Of a stretch of DNA of 64,000 nucleotides, positions 53,817-62,662 are shown piece by piece. Each line of letters opens with the position of its first letter. Position 1 is the stretch's first letter. Both the position numbers and the translations under genes were made by a program. The notes under the pieces are model-generated. The model was given only the letters and a program-made list of their open reading frames with translations, ran no database searches and had not been told where the DNA came from. Source of the DNA: Psychrobacter frigidicola. GTDB lineage: Bacteria > Pseudomonadota > Gammaproteobacteria > Pseudomonadales > Moraxellaceae. The stretch lies in NCBI RefSeq assembly GCF_007997305.1, contig NZ_VORZ01000001.1, forward strand, positions 930,001-994,000, in the 5' to 3' direction.

Positions 53817-53921
53817 TTACCTTTGATGACTTTATATCTGTAAAGCAACTGAACTAAGCCTTACCAGCCTGCTTCCAATAAAACAGTGTCCGATATAATC
53901 GGTACGGTTCACTTCTACATT

Positions 53922-53997
53922 TATCAAATTATCAAATTATCAAATTATCAAATTATCAAATTATCAAATTATCAAATTATCAAATTATCAAATTATC
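53922..53997. repeat. 8-bp tandem repeat (TATCAAAT), about 9.5 copies
   Basis: Seventy-six bases of uninterrupted identical TATCAAAT units, no sequence drift between copies, 90 bp beyond the 3' end of nadX. Perfect identity suggests ongoing slippage, so copy number is likely variable between strains. No spacers, so not a CRISPR. Confidence 0.95.
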
Positions 53998-54088
53998 AGC
54001 GGGATAATAGCTCTTTACCGGTTCACCACCATCAACTGGTTTTTATATGAAATAAATATTTCATAGTATTTCGCATTTTAATTCTGCT

Positions 54089-55110: not shown

Positions 55111-55845
55111 TCAGATCCAACCTGCTTCCAAAAGCTGCTCAGTATTACTCACTTTAAACTCATGATATAAATCAAAAAATACCGCAGGGTCTTCAATATC
55201 ATCGAGCAGCTCTCGTTTATGCAGTGCCACAAACATAGCCAACGCATAAGCTGCACAATGAATAGACTTTTTGGGATTAAATGTTATATCAGTAAAGGCT
55301 TGATATTGCACCACCTCTTCATGCAGCTGAGAGTTTTGCTTTAGAGCATTCACATACAGCCAGTCATAAAACGCGGTTAGGGGCTCTACGCTCCACTCTA
55401 TACCAAAATAATTGTAGCTCATTAATTCACCCGAGGTTATTAATCGCTCGTCTTTTTTGGCTTGTCTTGGCGGGACTGTCAGCAAGTCGCTATAGGGACC
55501 ACCATTCTCAAAAATCATACTGCTTTGAAAAGCATTTTCGACACTATACTGCTGACCATTATGCTCATTAGCCAGCTTTAAACTCAATGGGCTTAGCAAA
55601 AAACTTAACTTATTGCCAGATTTACTAGAGAGCTCTAAGACGTTATTAAACCCATATTTTTTGCGAATGACTTGATGCAAGTCATTGATGGATTTTTTCT
55701 TTTGTCTACTCGCAAAGCCTACATGCCGCTCAAACCTAACCATGTCTGTTTTTACCAGATTGTCACTGTTGACTCTAGGCATGAATACGGGTCTGTGTTC
55801 TACAGCGTTTTGTGCTTCTTCCATAGGGTTCTGTCTCGGTTCCAT
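55111..55845 (-). CDS. NADAR-family protein of the DarT1-associated type (DUF6977-like), apparently orphan
   Basis: 244 residues. Segments RPVFMPRVNSDNLVKT, RFERHVGFASRQKKKSINDLH, VLELSSKSGNKLSFLLSPLSL, VENAFQSSMIFENGGPYSDLL, AKKDERLITSGEL, LTAFYDWLYVNAL and FNPKKSIHCAAYALAMFVAL match my memory of the NADAR antitoxins encoded beside DarT1 DNA ADP-ribosyltransferases; they remove ADP-ribose from DNA bases. No DarT gene (DUF4433) is visible on either side. The N-terminal 10 residues may not be translated, as a second Met is at residue 8. Confidence 0.65.
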   Translation of the reverse strand: MEPRQNPMEEAQNAVEHRPVFMPRVNSDNLVKTDMVRFERHVGFASRQKKKSINDLHQVIRKKYGFNNVLELSSKSGNKLSFLLSPLSLKLANEHNGQQYSVENAFQSSMIFENGGPYSDLLTVPPRQAKKDERLITSGELMSYNYFGIEWSVEPLTAFYDWLYVNALKQNSQLHEEVVQYQAFTDITFNPKKSIHCAAYALAMFVALHKRELLDDIEDPAVFFDLYHEFKVSNTEQLLEAGWI

Positions 55846-56515: not shown

Positions 56516-57622
56516 TCAGCACCTAAGCCTGGGCAGTAAGCGAGGGTTAATAGTACGTAGCTTTATACTTGGTTCGGGTGACCAGACTAAATCTTCATGT
56601 TCTACGGCTATTTGATAAGCCCACTGGCTAATCGTTTCAGAACGCTGCTGATTGACCATAAAACTGATAGTTTTTGCTTCCTGTTCGATCGTATGGCCGT
56701 GTTTTTGATTACGTTCTAACCACTTCTCATAAAATAGCTCTTCAGCCAGATAATTACGTTTACTATTATTGCAGCTACGGTCGGTAAGTACAAAGTTATG
56801 AGTCGTATCAATAGGATATTTCGACCAAGGAATAAAGTGATCAACTTCTATATTATTTTTTAAGGATTTACGACAGTAAAAGCATTGCCCCTGCTGGGTA
56901 TCAATTAGTATAGGTATCAATAACTTTAAACTTTGCCGTGATTTATTGAACAGGAACTGTTGCAGATCAATATCATCACTGAAGTAACTTTGGTTATGAC
57001 AGTTCTTACGCACGAACTCTGTCCAATATTGTTGGCAGAGCTTGTTAATTATTTTACTAAAGCGCGTAAAACAGTATGCAATACCTGGCTTTAAAGTTAT
57101 TAAATTTGCTTTGGAGTCGTAAGCATATAAGAACTCGCGGCTAACTTTATCTTCTGCACTTTGCAAAAGTTTTGCGGGATACCTTTTGATGGTTGAAGCA
57201 ATATCTTTGATTGTTGATTGCCATAGTTTGATGTTTTGTGTGCGAGCTATGGTTAGACTGGTTGTCTTAGTCTTATACTGTAAAACTAGAATACTATTGA
57301 TAACACTAGCCTGACCCGAATTATTAGTTTGCCTGAGTACAGAGTCACTACTTTGATCCGAGAATGGTAACGCTTGCGTCCAATAAAGCTGAATAAACTG
57401 CTCTGCTAACTGCTGATAACAAATACTATGTTCACTGTCATCATTAACACCAGACTCTATAGCCAGATTAACCGTTGCCATTAATAAGGCAAATTTATAA
57501 GTCGAGGTATAAGAGCTAGACTCAAGCAACCATTGAATACTTTTCAAAAAATGCAGCTGAAAATCAGCGCTTGGTGTATTAGAAAAAAGTGCATCTACTG
57601 GGTAAAGGGGCAAGTCAGTCAT
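56516..57622 (-). CDS. HNH endonuclease domain protein
   Basis: 368 residues. The HNH/McrA motif is near residues 238-285: QCFYCRKSL, then VDHFIPWSKYP, then HNFVLTDRSCNNSKRN, with zinc cysteines and the catalytic His-Asn order. The N-terminal 230 residues are helical and not recognised (FALLMATVNLAIESG, SREFLYAYDSKANLITLKPG). Such proteins are often stand-alone nucleases in accessory regions, some with defence roles. The gene is monocistronic as far as can be seen. Confidence 0.8.
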   Translation of the reverse strand: MTDLPLYPVDALFSNTPSADFQLHFLKSIQWLLESSSYTSTYKFALLMATVNLAIESGVNDDSEHSICYQQLAEQFIQLYWTQALPFSDQSSDSVLRQTNNSGQASVINSILVLQYKTKTTSLTIARTQNIKLWQSTIKDIASTIKRYPAKLLQSAEDKVSREFLYAYDSKANLITLKPGIAYCFTRFSKIINKLCQQYWTEFVRKNCHNQSYFSDDIDLQQFLFNKSRQSLKLLIPILIDTQQGQCFYCRKSLKNNIEVDHFIPWSKYPIDTTHNFVLTDRSCNNSKRNYLAEELFYEKWLERNQKHGHTIEQEAKTISFMVNQQRSETISQWAYQIAVEHEDLVWSPEPSIKLRTINPRLLPRLRC

Positions 57623-58073
57623 TAATATTCTACTTATAATTGGGAAAACATACTATCTCGCTTTTATATAAAAGAATATACAAGACATTAAATTATATTT
57701 TAATAGAGATAGTTGTTTTAGACGTTTGTCTTTTCTCAATATATTATTTACATTCCTATGTAAAAGAAACACTAGCTTAACAATATAATCTAAACACAGT
57801 TGTTAATTCAACATAATATACTTAGCTGTCTCTGTAAAAGAGACTTTTGTTGTTCTTGCAAAACGAAACGTCTTTTAATGTAAAATCTCGCAAAAAAACT
57901 GAACAACTTTTAAAACAGGGTTTTTTCCTCTACAGATACACCTAATTTTTATTAGGTACTATTACTGTCTGCAAAATTTCTAATACTTAGTTTTTGAGTA
58001 TAAAAGTAAAAATATATTTTTCTTATGTAATAAAGAATTTATAGCATATCTTATCGTGGCTGAGGGCCGTTAT
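57623..58073. other. divergent intergenic region
   Basis: About 450 bp between the HNH gene (minus) and the beta-helix gene (plus). TGTAAAAG-type hexamers recur (near 57759, 57834 and 57878, the last as TGTAAAAT) and CGAAACGTCTTTT lies near 57864. It must hold both promoters; no RNA gene is recognised. Confidence 0.4.
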
Positions 58074-59834
58074 ATGAAGGTATTAAAAGTAGGTAAAAGT
58101 ATATTTAAGATGAGCCTTGAAAAGGCCTTATCAACAGCGGGCACAGAAGATACCATTCAGCTCGCACCTGGTAGGTATAATTTAGACACCGTAATTAACC
58201 GTGGAATTACTTTTGAAGCGGAGTTTCCCGACAGTTCGGTAGTTATCACAGGCACATTAAGTATTAATAATACGAGCTGTATATTTAAAAATATCACTTT
58301 TGAATGTAGTGCCCGTGATAAAAACCTAATTGTAGCAAATCAAAGCAATCTTATGTTTGAGCACTGCTCTTTCTATGGCAATCATATCGAGCTAGCAAGA
58401 GCTATATTTTTGACTAAATCTAATTTGACCGTATATTGTTGTTCGTTTTCAGGTATTAGTAGCAATGCCATTAAGGCTATGAAATCAAGTAAGGTCGCTG
58501 TTTATAAAAGTATTTTTAAGGATTTAAAAGACAGCTCGGCCATTTATATGGAAAGCTCGCAGCTCGATATACAAGATTGTCGTTTTATTAACATCACAAC
58601 TAACGCTGTTAATGCCATTGGCAAGAGTGATATTAAAGCCCGTGACTGTGAGTGGGAAGTAACAAAAGCCCCTGCTTTATACCTAAACCCAAAAGTCACC
58701 GTAGAGATTACCGACAGTGTCTTTAAAAGCAGTAATACTGTCATCTTCGCGCAGCAAGCGACGTTAATTATAGCGTCCTGAGATTTTATGGGCATTACCG
58801 AAAACCCTCTGGTTAAAGCCAAACCAAGCAAGCAATTACCCATTACGAACCATTTATTCAAAGACATGGCGCATTCTTCAGTTCTAGAGTTAGATAATTC
58901 ACAGCTTGATATGCAAAGCAGCCGTTTTATTGATATTGAAATCCATGCCATCGAATCCATTGGTCACAGTCATATTAAAGCGCGTGAGTGCACATGGTAC
59001 GTGAATAACATGCCGGTCTTATACTTACATCCTGAGGGTAACGTAGAGATTACTCATAGTATTTTTGAGGGCAGCAATGCCATTATTTGCGTACAAGAAG
59101 CCACGCTGGTACTAAAGTCTTGTGAGTTCATGGGCATCAACGAAAATCATCCGATTAGAGTCAAGCAAAACGGCGTACTGTCTATCATAGATTGTGTATT
59201 TAAAGACATTGCAAATTTTCCAGCTATCAAAGTAGAAAGCTCCCACCTTGAGATGCTTAGTTGCCGTTTTATCGATATCATTTGTAATGGTCTACATGTT
59301 GACGGAAACAGTCATATCACCGCTAATAACTGTATATGGCAAGTCACTCAAAATCGCGCCATTGTCTTATATCCGCAAGTAACAGCAGAGATTACTAACA
59401 GTGTTTTTAAGGGTAGCAATGCCTCAATTTTTACACAGCAGGCAAAGTTAACCTTAAAGTCCTGCGAGTTTGTGGATATCAGCGAAGCCAACCCCATTAA
59501 AGCGACTCAGCACAGCCAAATAACCATTGTGAGTTGTAACTTTAATAATATCAAGAATTTCCATGCGTTTTATACAGAAGACAGCAGTCGTAACCAAATA
59601 ATAGACAGTTGCTTTAATGGCAACGCTTTGGTTGATCGTTCGGCTGAATACTCCAAGAGCCAAACTATAGATGAGCCGATTTTAGATAGTAGCCGCTGTT
59701 CGGAGATGAGTGAGGGTGACTTATGGTTTCTAAATAACGATTCTGTTGAAAAATTACATGCTAATTCTGAGGGTAATGACAGCTATGAGGTCGAGGAATA
59801 CGAAGAAAATCGTAGAACCAAACGCGATAACTAA
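58074..59834 (+). pseudogene. parallel beta-helix repeat protein with in-frame TGA
   Basis: Start ATG 58074 follows GAGGG at eight bases. The frame has 587 codons, interrupted only by TGA 58779-58781. The N-terminal part VLKVGKSIFKMSLEKALSTAGTEDTIQLAPGRY is the usual cap of pectate-lyase-like beta-helices. Residues from about 160 on are built of 114-codon repeats: the segments IKARDCEWEV, IKARECTWYV and ITANNCIWQV start at 58632, 58974 and 59316, exactly 342 bp apart. The Cys of KSCEF is TGT at 59121, TGC at 59463 and TGA at 58779 on the same spacing. The C-terminal 60 residues are acidic and unstructured. No signal peptide is seen. Function unknown. Confidence 0.75.
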
Positions 59835-60054: not shown

Positions 60055-60816
60055 CTAAGCCAACATACCGCCGTCAACGATGACACAAGCGCCTGTCGTA
60101 TAACTTGAAGCATCAGAGACCAAATACAAAACCGTTCCTGCCATTTCATCAGGATGTGCAACGCGCCCTAATGGGATTGCTTTTAGCGCCATATTTAATA
60201 CTTTGTCATTGGTAGTCAAGGCTGAGGCAAACTTAGTATCCGTTAGACCGGGCAGCAGCGCATTGACACGAATATTTAAAGGGCCACATTCTTTAGCAAA
60301 GGCTTTCGTCATGCTTATCACAGCGGCTTTGGTTATTGAGTAGATACCTTGCATATCACCAGCTACTACACCATTCACGGATGCAGTATTTAAGATGACC
60401 CCACCGCCCTGCTCACGCATCATCTTGCCAGCAGCGGTCGACATAAAGAAGTATCCACGGATATTTACATCGATAGTCTTCTCAAAAGCGGCTAAGTCAG
60501 TGTCTAAAATGTGCCCATAATAAGGGTTTGCCGCAGCGTTATTTACCAAAATATCAATGCGTCCAAACTCACTTTTGACATATTCGAAGATAGCCGCTAT
60601 TTGCGCCATTTCTCCTACGTGACAAGCAAAAGCACTGGCTTTTCCGCCGTCAGCAATTATGCTGTTGGCAACTGCTCGGCAAGCATCGATTTTGCGGCTA
60701 GATACAATAACGTGAGCGCCTCTTGATGCCAGCAAGCGTGCAATAGATTCACCAATACCGCGACTCGCGCCTGTAACCAGTACAATTTTACCCGTTAAAT
60801 CAAATAAGTCTTTCAT
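60055..60816 (-). CDS. SDR-family oxidoreductase (3-oxoacyl-ACP reductase-like)
   Basis: 253 residues from ATG 60816, preceded by AAAGGA; a further upstream ATG would run into the acyl-CoA dehydrogenase gene. TGASRGIGES is the NADP(H) motif, NNAAAN the structural motif, NTASVNG with the catalytic Ser and YSITK with Tyr and Lys are all present, and the C-terminus ends in ACVIVDGGMLA. It begins 41 bp after the acyl-CoA dehydrogenase stop, so the two form an operon, probably for fatty-acid or related acyl-CoA breakdown. Confidence 0.92.
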   Translation of the reverse strand: MKDLFDLTGKIVLVTGASRGIGESIARLLASRGAHVIVSSRKIDACRAVANSIIADGGKASAFACHVGEMAQIAAIFEYVKSEFGRIDILVNNAAANPYYGHILDTDLAAFEKTIDVNIRGYFFMSTAAGKMMREQGGGVILNTASVNGVVAGDMQGIYSITKAAVISMTKAFAKECGPLNIRVNALLPGLTDTKFASALTTNDKVLNMALKAIPLGRVAHPDEMAGTVLYLVSDASSYTTGACVIVDGGMLA

Positions 60817-60856
60817 AGTTATTCCTTTAAATATTTTTTTATTTAAAACAGCTTTA

Positions 60857-62662
60857 TTAAAACCAATCCGCTTGCATGTCCGTGCAAATAGAATTGTCAT
60901 TCATTAGTAGTTCAATATCACGCTTTATAGTAGGCAGCTCCCAATCAATGAAGTATTTTGCTGCTTGCATTTTACCTTGATAAAAGTTCTGTTTTTCAAT
61001 ATCGTTTGTCGTACCTAATAATTGTTCCGCTTTACTGGCCTGACGAATCCAAATCCAGCTCACTACAATGGAGGCAAATATATTCATCAATGCTTGGGCA
61101 TTACCGGTCAGCGTAATCACTTTTTCAGTTTGCAGCGTTTTGCTTAAATGTACCAATACTTCATGCAGATGTTCCATATAAGGCAGTTGTTTGGCCACCA
61201 GTTGTGCTGATTCAGGCGTGTTAATACTTTCTAAATCTTTAGTAATTTCACGTTTTAGAATTTGAATACCAAGCCCATCGTTTTGCCATAACTTGCGAAA
61301 CGACAAATCTAAGGCTTGCACACCGTTCGTACCTTCATGAATGGGATTAAGGCGATTATCGCGCCAAAACTGTTCAGCAAAGTACTCTCTTGTATAACCC
61401 GCACCGCCCAATACTTGGATACCTAAATCATTGGCTTTAGGGCCATATTCAGATGGCCATGCTTTTAAGACAGGCGTTAATAAATCTAGCAACTCTGATA
61501 GCTCAGACTTCAAAGTCTCATCTTCACAAGTATTGATACGATCGATAAGGTTAGAGCCGTATAAGCATAATGAAATGCCGCCCTCAGAATAAGCCTTTTG
61601 TGCTAATAACATGCGCTTAACATCACCATGATTGATGATGGCTGTGGCATCATGTTCAGGCTTATTGTTGGGTGCAATTCTGCCCTGCAATCTATCTTTG
61701 GCATAAGCTAGCGAATACTGATAACCGCGATAGCCTATCATTGCTGCGCCAAAACCAACGGCGATGCGAGCCTCATTCATCATCTTAAACATATAGCGTA
61801 AACCGAAGTGCTCTTCACCTACAAGGTAGCCATAACATTCGTTATCATCACCGAAGCTTAATGCGGTTGATGTGGTACCTCTATAGCCAAGTTTATGTAA
61901 TAGACCCGTTAAATGTACGTCATTGCGTATGCCGACTGACCCATCCTCATTCAATCTATATTTGGGTACAACAAAAAGGGAGATGCCTTTAACGCCGCTA
62001 GGACCACCGGGAACTTTGGCTAAAACCAGATGAACAATATTGTCTGATAGTTCATGATCGCCACCGGATATATATATTTTGCTGCCTTTAACGCGGTAAG
62101 AGCCGTCCGCTTGTTTTACGGCAGTGGTTCTAATATCGGCAAGCGACGAGCCAGCATGCGGCTCCGTTAATGCCATGGTTCCGGTAAATTCTCCGGTTAA
62201 CATACGCGGCATAAAGGCATTTTTAATATCATTGCTAGCAAAATGTGCAAGTACATTAATCGCGGCAGTAGTCAAAAACGGATAAGCAGTCGTTGCAGGA
62301 TTGGCGGCCATAAAATAGCCTGTCACCGCTGTCATCAAGGTTTCAGGTAATTGCATTCCACCGTCATCGAAACTATAACGACCAGCTATAAAGCCTGAGT
62401 CTCTAAAGGCATCAAAAGCGACTTTGACATCCTCAATCATGCTGACCTTTTTACCATCAAACTGTGGCTCATTTTTATCGGCGACGTGGTTGTGTGGCAA
62501 AAATAAGTCAGTGGCTATCTTATTCGCCGTATCTAATACGGCATCAAAAGTGCCGCGATTGTGTTCTGCAAACTTAGAACTCTCACAAAGACTTTCAGCG
62601 TCCAGCACATCATATAATTGGAAAGGGAGTTCAAAATCATTAATAAGGGTATCTGCTGCCAT
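60857..62662 (-). CDS. acyl-CoA dehydrogenase (large, FadE-like)
   Basis: 601 residues, the size of the long class with a C-terminal extension domain. Signatures are MALTEPHAGSSLADIRTTA (FAD/acyl contact), KIYISGGDHEL and QVLGGAGYTREYFAEQFWRDNRLNPIHEGTNGVQALDLSFRK, the last containing the catalytic Glu in HEGTNG. It oxidises acyl-CoA to enoyl-CoA, delivering electrons to ETF. The following SDR enzyme and the separate universal stress protein gene are on the same strand. Confidence 0.93.
   Translation of the reverse strand: MAADTLINDFELPFQLYDVLDAESLCESSKFAEHNRGTFDAVLDTANKIATDLFLPHNHVADKNEPQFDGKKVSMIEDVKVAFDAFRDSGFIAGRYSFDDGGMQLPETLMTAVTGYFMAANPATTAYPFLTTAAINVLAHFASNDIKNAFMPRMLTGEFTGTMALTEPHAGSSLADIRTTAVKQADGSYRVKGSKIYISGGDHELSDNIVHLVLAKVPGGPSGVKGISLFVVPKYRLNEDGSVGIRNDVHLTGLLHKLGYRGTTSTALSFGDDNECYGYLVGEEHFGLRYMFKMMNEARIAVGFGAAMIGYRGYQYSLAYAKDRLQGRIAPNNKPEHDATAIINHGDVKRMLLAQKAYSEGGISLCLYGSNLIDRINTCEDETLKSELSELLDLLTPVLKAWPSEYGPKANDLGIQVLGGAGYTREYFAEQFWRDNRLNPIHEGTNGVQALDLSFRKLWQNDGLGIQILKREITKDLESINTPESAQLVAKQLPYMEHLHEVLVHLSKTLQTEKVITLTGNAQALMNIFASIVVSWIWIRQASKAEQLLGTTNDIEKQNFYQGKMQAAKYFIDWELPTIKRDIELLMNDNSICTDMQADWF

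What the first reader, a model, noticed from the sequence alone, without database searches (positions are those of the whole stretch)
58074..59834. Beta-helix gene with an exact 114-codon repeat and TGA at the repeat's Cys codon
Three repeat copies are spaced at exactly 342 bp. The Cys of the KSCEF element is TGT and TGC in two copies and TGA in the first. This dates the stop to a single change in a codon that is Cys elsewhere, and shows recent internal duplication. The protein has no export signal and no known partner, and an acidic tail follows the helix.
Basis: seen in the sequence. Interest (0 to 1): 0.6.

Follow-up and report, generated by a model that had tools for sequence, protein, structure and literature searches.

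The report
Orphaned, stop-broken beta-helix half of chaperone
This Psychrobacter gene is the substrate-binding half of a known kind of two-part chaperone that has lost its motor half and carries one stop codon, so it is most likely a decaying leftover and not a new system.

Summary
One frame (58074-59834) is cut by a single TGA at 58779-58781; the codon is TGT and TGC one and two units on, at exactly 342-bp spacing. The repeat is exact in period only: units share 58-60% DNA and 43-45% protein identity, third positions 38-46%, so it is old. Homologues occur in 3 of 105 genus genomes, own included. In the other two (Psychrobacter sp. I-STPA6b and I-STPA10) the helix is the N-terminal half of an unbroken 1157-1339 aa protein that continues into two AAA+ domains of the SpoVK/EccA/CbbX clade. 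Cys stands at the TGA position in 3 of 3 of those copies. No such AAA+ half was found in the window's genome, nor SelA, nor a tRNA-Sec over cut-off, so selenocysteine is very unlikely. The 'acidic tail' is where relatives have the linker to the motor. Streptomyces has the same architecture beside type VII secretion genes (5 of 5 Streptomyces loci opened), and a beta-helix N-terminal domain in EccA is already in print (PMC10659427). Verdict: an orphaned, nonsense-broken adaptor domain of a known chaperone kind; low interest.

The parts
58062..58066 (+). Shine-Dalgarno-like GAGGG, 7 nt before ATG 58074
   Evidence: seen directly in sequence
58074..58781 (+). 5' part of the broken beta-helix frame, ATG to TGA (235 codons plus stop)
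   Evidence: Pfam Beta_helix E 2.3e-11 (scanned from the GTG at 58056); this Met is aligned with Met in relatives
58479..58820 (+). 114-codon unit A (holds the TGA); boundaries arbitrary within the period
   Evidence: self-comparison at offset 114
58779..58781 (+). in-frame TGA where relatives and the next two units have Cys
58788..59834 (+). 3' part of the same frame, listed as a separate ORF from an internal ATG (348 aa)
   Evidence: Pfam Beta_helix E 8.7e-16; the ATG is the Met of a D/E-F-M-G motif that is plain coding sequence in unit B, so it looks like a coding residue and not an evolved start
58821..59162 (+). 114-codon unit B (TGT at 59121-59123)
59163..59504 (+). 114-codon unit C (TGC at 59463-59465)
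59685..59831 (+). disordered acidic tail at the place of the linker to the AAA+ half in relatives; the homology ends at 59747
   Evidence: pLDDT under 50 for residues 538-586; tblastn of the whole relative protein covers only 58074-59747 with significance

Best explanation
The gene is the N-terminal beta-helix domain of a beta-helix/tandem AAA+ chaperone of the SpoVK/EccA/CbbX clade, orphaned and broken. In intact relatives a long beta-helix (a rigid solenoid, presumably in the cytosol) most likely binds a particular client protein and hands it, across an acidic linker, to two SpoVK/EccA-type ATPase domains that remodel it. In this genome the gene ends in the linker, the ATPase half was found nowhere in the assembly, and a nonsense codon has appeared at a conserved Cys in the middle of the helix. 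It therefore most likely does nothing now: no motor to serve, and translation stops after 235 residues. Shown here: domain kinship, no AAA+ half found, the TGA at a conserved Cys, no Sec apparatus found (SelA, tRNA-Sec), old repeats. Inferred: client binding by the helix (also the published inference for the clade), loss of the motor by deletion, loss of function.
For: Homologues in 3 of 105 genus genomes, own included, and the same 3 among 299 genomes drawn from the family. The relatives hold three uninterrupted copies of 1157, 1225 and 1339 aa; the two scanned with Pfam (1157 and 1339 aa) have Beta_helix followed by 2 x AAA and 2 x AAA_lid_6; the 1157-aa one scores over the NCBIfam cut-offs for SpoVK and EccA. 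That whole protein aligns colinearly over its residues 1-562 to 58074-59747 at 30% and nothing of its AAA half lies in the window. The own genome's best match to the AAA half is 18 bits, against 948 bits in G078 (1190 for the query's own genome G077). A tblastn of the read-through window helix against 72,556 plasmid records finds two records, both annotated beta-helix proteins of Streptomyces; one of these genes was opened and lies in a type VII secretion locus. All 5 Streptomyces loci opened lie beside type VII secretion genes. The relatives' cysM-barA site is without the gene here, and the SDR side of the window gene faces different neighbours in 5 of 5 relatives opened, so it sits in a variable region. 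Cys at the TGA position in 3 of 3 related copies. PMC10659427 (passages) names a beta-helix among the N-terminal domains of EccA and says that such domains might recruit the substrate.
Against: After the TGA the frame stays open for 348 codons with no frameshift and no second stop, and the units differ most at third positions, so the protein was probably under selection until recently, perhaps already without its motor; the age of the AAA loss is unknown. The TGA rests on one assembly and could be a sequencing error. Kinship of the helix with Streptomyces is weak (20-24% identity; the 3' part alone finds no plasmid record) because beta-helices are repetitive; kinship with the G077 protein (30%, E 2e-77 to 6e-83) is firm.
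Confidence: 0.68

Rival explanations
1. A functional helix-only protein: the beta-helix lost its ATPase long ago, kept a role of its own (scaffold or binding protein), and the TGA is a very recent mutation in this isolate or an assembly error.
For: Frame otherwise intact over 1.76 kb; coding-type divergence between units; the read-through model is one long run of helix strands; good Shine-Dalgarno and start.
Against: No helix-only relative was seen: 3 of 3 homologous copies in the other genus genomes are fused to AAA+. No match in the remaining 102 of 105 genus genomes.
Confidence: 0.22
2. Two-chain product: the ribosome stops at TGA and restarts at ATG 58788, six bases on, giving two fragments that pair into one helix.
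For: Stop and ATG lie close enough for coupled restart; a three-base GAG, formed by the end of the TGA and the next base, stands 5 nt before the ATG.
Against: The ATG is the Met of a motif that is plain coding sequence in unit B, so it was not evolved as a start; the GAG is a minimal ribosome-binding match; no relative is split; the cut falls in the middle of the predicted helix, between strands 230-234 and 237-239.
Confidence: 0.06
3. Selenocysteine: TGA at a Cys position read as Sec.
For: TGA for Cys is the usual signature of Sec (recalled).
Against: SelA not found in the own genome, with E. coli ringing in the control; 8 tRNA-Sec matches, all under the cut-off (best 40.7 against 47 bits; the control rings in all 14 genomes and over the cut-off in 5, so sub-threshold matches are ordinary); the helix has many other Cys in like positions. 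SelB and SelD were not searched.
Confidence: 0.01

Closest known systems
Beta-helix/tandem AAA+ proteins of Psychrobacter sp. I-STPA6b and I-STPA10 (G077, G078)
   Same: Beta-helix colinear with G077's over 562 residues at 30% identity, same M-x-x-LKVG start, similar 114-116-residue superperiod, Cys at the TGA position
   Different: Unbroken, with two SpoVK/EccA-type AAA+ domains after a linker; placed between cysM and a barA-like kinase gene (gene names recalled from sequence)
EccA-like chaperones of type VII secretion loci in Streptomyces ('right-handed parallel beta-helix repeat-containing protein')
   Same: N-terminal beta-helix with a similar N-terminal start (blastp E 1e-9); AAA half 43% identical to that of the G077 protein
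   Different: The motor is present; they stand near eccC/eccD/S8 peptidase or WXG100 genes. The window gene has neither
SpoVK/CbbX/EccA AAA+ clade with interchangeable N-terminal domains (PMC10659427)
   Different: The window gene is only the N-terminal domain

Membership tests
SpoVK/EccA-clade AAA+ chaperone with beta-helix N-terminus | N-terminal beta-helix homologous to that of fused members | tested here: met
SpoVK/EccA-clade AAA+ chaperone with beta-helix N-terminus | One or two AAA + AAA_lid_6 domains in the same protein | tested here: not met
   none in the gene or window; own genome only a weak 18-bit match; so the window gene is a fragment of this kind and not a working member
EccA (type VII secretion ATPase) | EccC and other T7SS genes in the genome | tested here: not met
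   0 of 3 genomes (own, G077, G078) over the EccC_a cut-off; all three have sub-threshold matches, which I read as FtsK-type ATPases (recalled); no control genome passed the cut-off either, so the test lacks a positive control. Other T7SS genes were not searched
Selenoprotein | SelA and tRNA-Sec in the genome | tested here: not met
Secreted pectate-lyase-like or NosD beta-helix protein | Export signal and a catalytic or copper site | tested here: inconclusive
   No signal seen by eye; Pfam NosD under its cut-off, NCBIfam NosD 21.7 bits against 300; the PDB fold search gives assorted beta-helix proteins at 8-13% identity; catalytic residues were not compared
Pseudogene | Disabling lesion in an otherwise homologous reading frame | tested here: met
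   TGA against Cys in 3 of 3 related copies; raw reads could not be checked

The most novel reading that the evidence does not exclude
The beta-helix adaptor of an EccA/SpoVK-type chaperone lives on without its motor as a stand-alone cytosolic solenoid (or as a two-piece helix made by restart after the TGA), that is, a client-binding domain turned into an independent scaffold or decoy.
Probability: 0.12. Interest if true: 0.4.

Novelty: new member of a known kind. Interest (0 to 1): 0.17.

Why it matters
On its own, little: it explains away an odd stop codon. It does give an identity to an unexplained gene (the N-terminal domain of an EccA/SpoVK-like chaperone), shows that beta-helix/AAA+ chaperones occur in Psychrobacter genomes in which no EccC was found over its cut-off, and shows that their helix length can differ by a whole 114-residue unit between two otherwise 99.7% identical copies in one relative, a handle on how the client-binding domain evolves.

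Tried and rejected
Recent internal duplication in the window gene: rejected by unit divergence. Selenocysteine: rejected. AAA remnants downstream of 59834: none significant. Phage or viral origin: no relative in 50,697 phage records, nor in IMG/VR, where 57 stretches matched A1 patterns and none was confirmed. Plasmids: the 3' part of the helix alone finds nothing, the read-through helix two Streptomyces records; at DNA level only a 69.6% match under the neighbouring HNH gene in one Acinetobacter plasmid. Other matches to the helix profile in the order (3 genomes besides the own one, of 293; E 6.6e-5 to 2.4e-4) are, from the frames seen (one of them only in part), generic beta-helix proteins that by eye have lipoprotein or signal starts or other domains, and were dropped as kin. 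Pfam Adeno_E1B_55K reached its cut-off exactly (24.5 bits) on the 5' part and again, higher, on the 1339-aa relative; I take it as an echo of the beta-helix repeats. Solved-structure sequence search: two matches at E about 0.9 only. Foldseek gave assorted beta-helix proteins with low TM-scores (first row E 4.4e-9, TM 0.35). Nine literature searches: eight gave nothing on point (listings only), the ninth listed PMC10659427, of which I saw the abstract, the outline and the 12 passages of a term search. The only search for this gene in Psychrobacter papers is (7 papers, titles and starts of abstracts seen), so I make no wider claim about print.

Full report
What is there. The window is G000:C1:930001-994000 of a 2.85 Mb, 8-contig assembly; the two related genomes are Psychrobacter, and G000 shares their genus label. 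Between 58074 and 59834 lies one reading frame interrupted by a single TGA at 58779-58781. ATG 58074 has GAGGG seven bases upstream, and its Met aligns with Met in relatives. Both parts match Pfam Beta_helix (2.3e-11 and 8.7e-16). Read through, the protein is modelled as one long run of short strands over residues 1-537 (mean pLDDT 85 and pTM 0.79 for the whole model, four sequences in the alignment) followed by a disordered tail (538-586).

The repeat. Self-comparison peaks at exactly 114 residues (27% identity over the whole protein; 200 shuffles reach at most 12.7%), and the codon at the TGA is TGT and TGC 342 and 684 bases on. But the three units are only 58-60% identical in DNA and 43-45% in protein; positions 1, 2 and 3 of codons are 58-64%, 68-76% and 38-46% identical. 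These are old units that diverged under coding constraint. The relatives show similar superperiods (114-116 residues). A recent unit change does exist, but elsewhere: the two copies in I-STPA10 (G078), whose aligned flanks are 99.66-99.73% identical, encode 1225 and 1339 residues, a difference of one 114-residue unit. Whether these are two loci of one cell or two strains mixed in one assembly (estimated contamination 5%) is open.

Kin. A search with the 3' part finds matches in 3 of 105 genus genomes (own, G077, G078); a read-through search of 299 genomes drawn from the family finds the same three. In G077 and G078 the helix is the N-terminal half of a 1157-1339 aa protein (three copies). In the two copies scanned the C-terminal half has two AAA and two AAA_lid_6 domains; the G077 protein passes the NCBIfam cut-offs for SpoVK (568 against 423 bits) and EccA (484 against 467) and just misses that for CbbX (443 against 459). 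The residue at the TGA is Cys in all three relative copies (two are near-identical, so two independent witnesses). The window protein aligns to residues 1-562 of G077's and ends in what is there the linker; no significant AAA match follows in the window, and the genome's best match to the AAA half is 18 bits. So the 'acidic tail' is most likely the stump of the linker.

Place. In G077 and G078 the gene lies between cysM and a barA-like hybrid kinase (names recalled from sequence). In the own genome that site is a 378-base gap without the gene. The window gene instead stands beside an SDR/acyl-CoA dehydrogenase-like pair (names recalled from sequence). The DNA of that side matches 102 of 105 genus genomes, own included (some of those only weakly, so not all are orthologues), and in 5 of 5 relatives opened none of the window's helix, HNH or NADAR genes follows there (in one, L100, only about 1.3 kb of that side is held). 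It is thus an accessory gene in a variable place.

Wider kin. Against 72,556 plasmids the read-through helix finds two records, both Streptomyces 'right-handed parallel beta-helix repeat-containing protein' (20% identity, E 1e-7 and 2e-7); the 3' part alone finds none. The AAA half finds 268 records. I opened six of the 30 listed there: 5 of 5 Streptomyces loci hold such a beta-helix protein within a few genes of type VII secretion genes (eccCa and an S8 peptidase; WXG100 and EsaB/YukD-type genes), while the Methylibium one is a 469-aa AAA protein with no T7SS gene annotated nearby. A class-wide search with the AAA half gave matches in 201 of 369 genomes, but of the places listed only 41, in 37 genomes, exceed 90 bits; the other listed ones are at 70 bits or less. 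I opened six regions chosen for high score or long frame: L148 has TPR and L149 Sel1 repeats before the AAA domain; L145 and L146 have two and three AAA stretches with no repeat domain found by Pfam (L145 was scanned only from an internal Met); L144 and L147 were judged by eye as CbbX-like. [quoted passage not shown] So the architecture is known.

The stop. Selenocysteine is not credible: no SelA found, no tRNA-Sec above cut-off (SelB and SelD not searched). Restart at ATG 58788 is possible in principle: a GAG made by the end of the TGA and the next base stands 5 nt before it. But that ATG is the Met of a D/E-F-M-G motif that is plain coding sequence in unit B, and no relative is split. Without its motor the helix has no evident task here; one nonsense codon with no further lesion suggests that decay is recent, or that the TGA is an assembly error. 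Only reads or sister strains can tell.

Conclusion. An orphaned N-terminal, probably client-binding, beta-helix of an EccA/SpoVK-type AAA+ chaperone, broken by one nonsense codon; a relic of a known kind (0.68). The strongest rival is a helix-only protein still functional until very recently (0.22).

Noticed in passing
window 55111-55845 (-): NADAR antitoxin of the DarT1-associated type (Pfam NADAR-DarT1, 2.2e-85) with no DarT (PF14487) match in the whole genome (0 of 1; the control rings in 1 of 14) and no evident remnant in the 670 bases beside it (read by eye): possibly an orphan antitoxin next to the orphan helix.
   Followed up: partly
window 56516-57622 (-): 368-aa protein with a C-terminal HNH domain resembling those of IscB/Cas9 and PtuB models, all under or without curated cut-offs except Pfam HNH_4 and HNH; a short stretch is 69.6% identical to an Acinetobacter lwoffii plasmid gene.
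   Followed up: no
window 53921-53998: Perfect tandem array of TTATCAAA, 9.8 copies, in a 1.8 kb stretch with no ORF of 90 aa or more between two minus-strand genes; copy number could vary.
   Followed up: no
L021 (G078:C33) and L022 (G078:C8): Psychrobacter sp. I-STPA10 assembly holds the beta-helix/AAA+ region twice, aligned flanks 99.66-99.73% identical, differing by one 114-codon unit: recent unit gain or loss, or two strains mixed.
   Followed up: partly
L133, L135, L136, L137, L138: Streptomyces plasmids carry beta-helix/AAA+ proteins near type VII secretion genes in 5 of 5 Streptomyces loci opened, which suggests that the beta-helix stands in for the TPR domain of EccA there.
   Followed up: partly
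window 60055-62662 and L098-L102: The SDR gene is found in 5 of 5 relatives opened, while none of the window's helix, HNH or NADAR genes lies on that side of it there: a possible insertion hot spot.
   Followed up: partly
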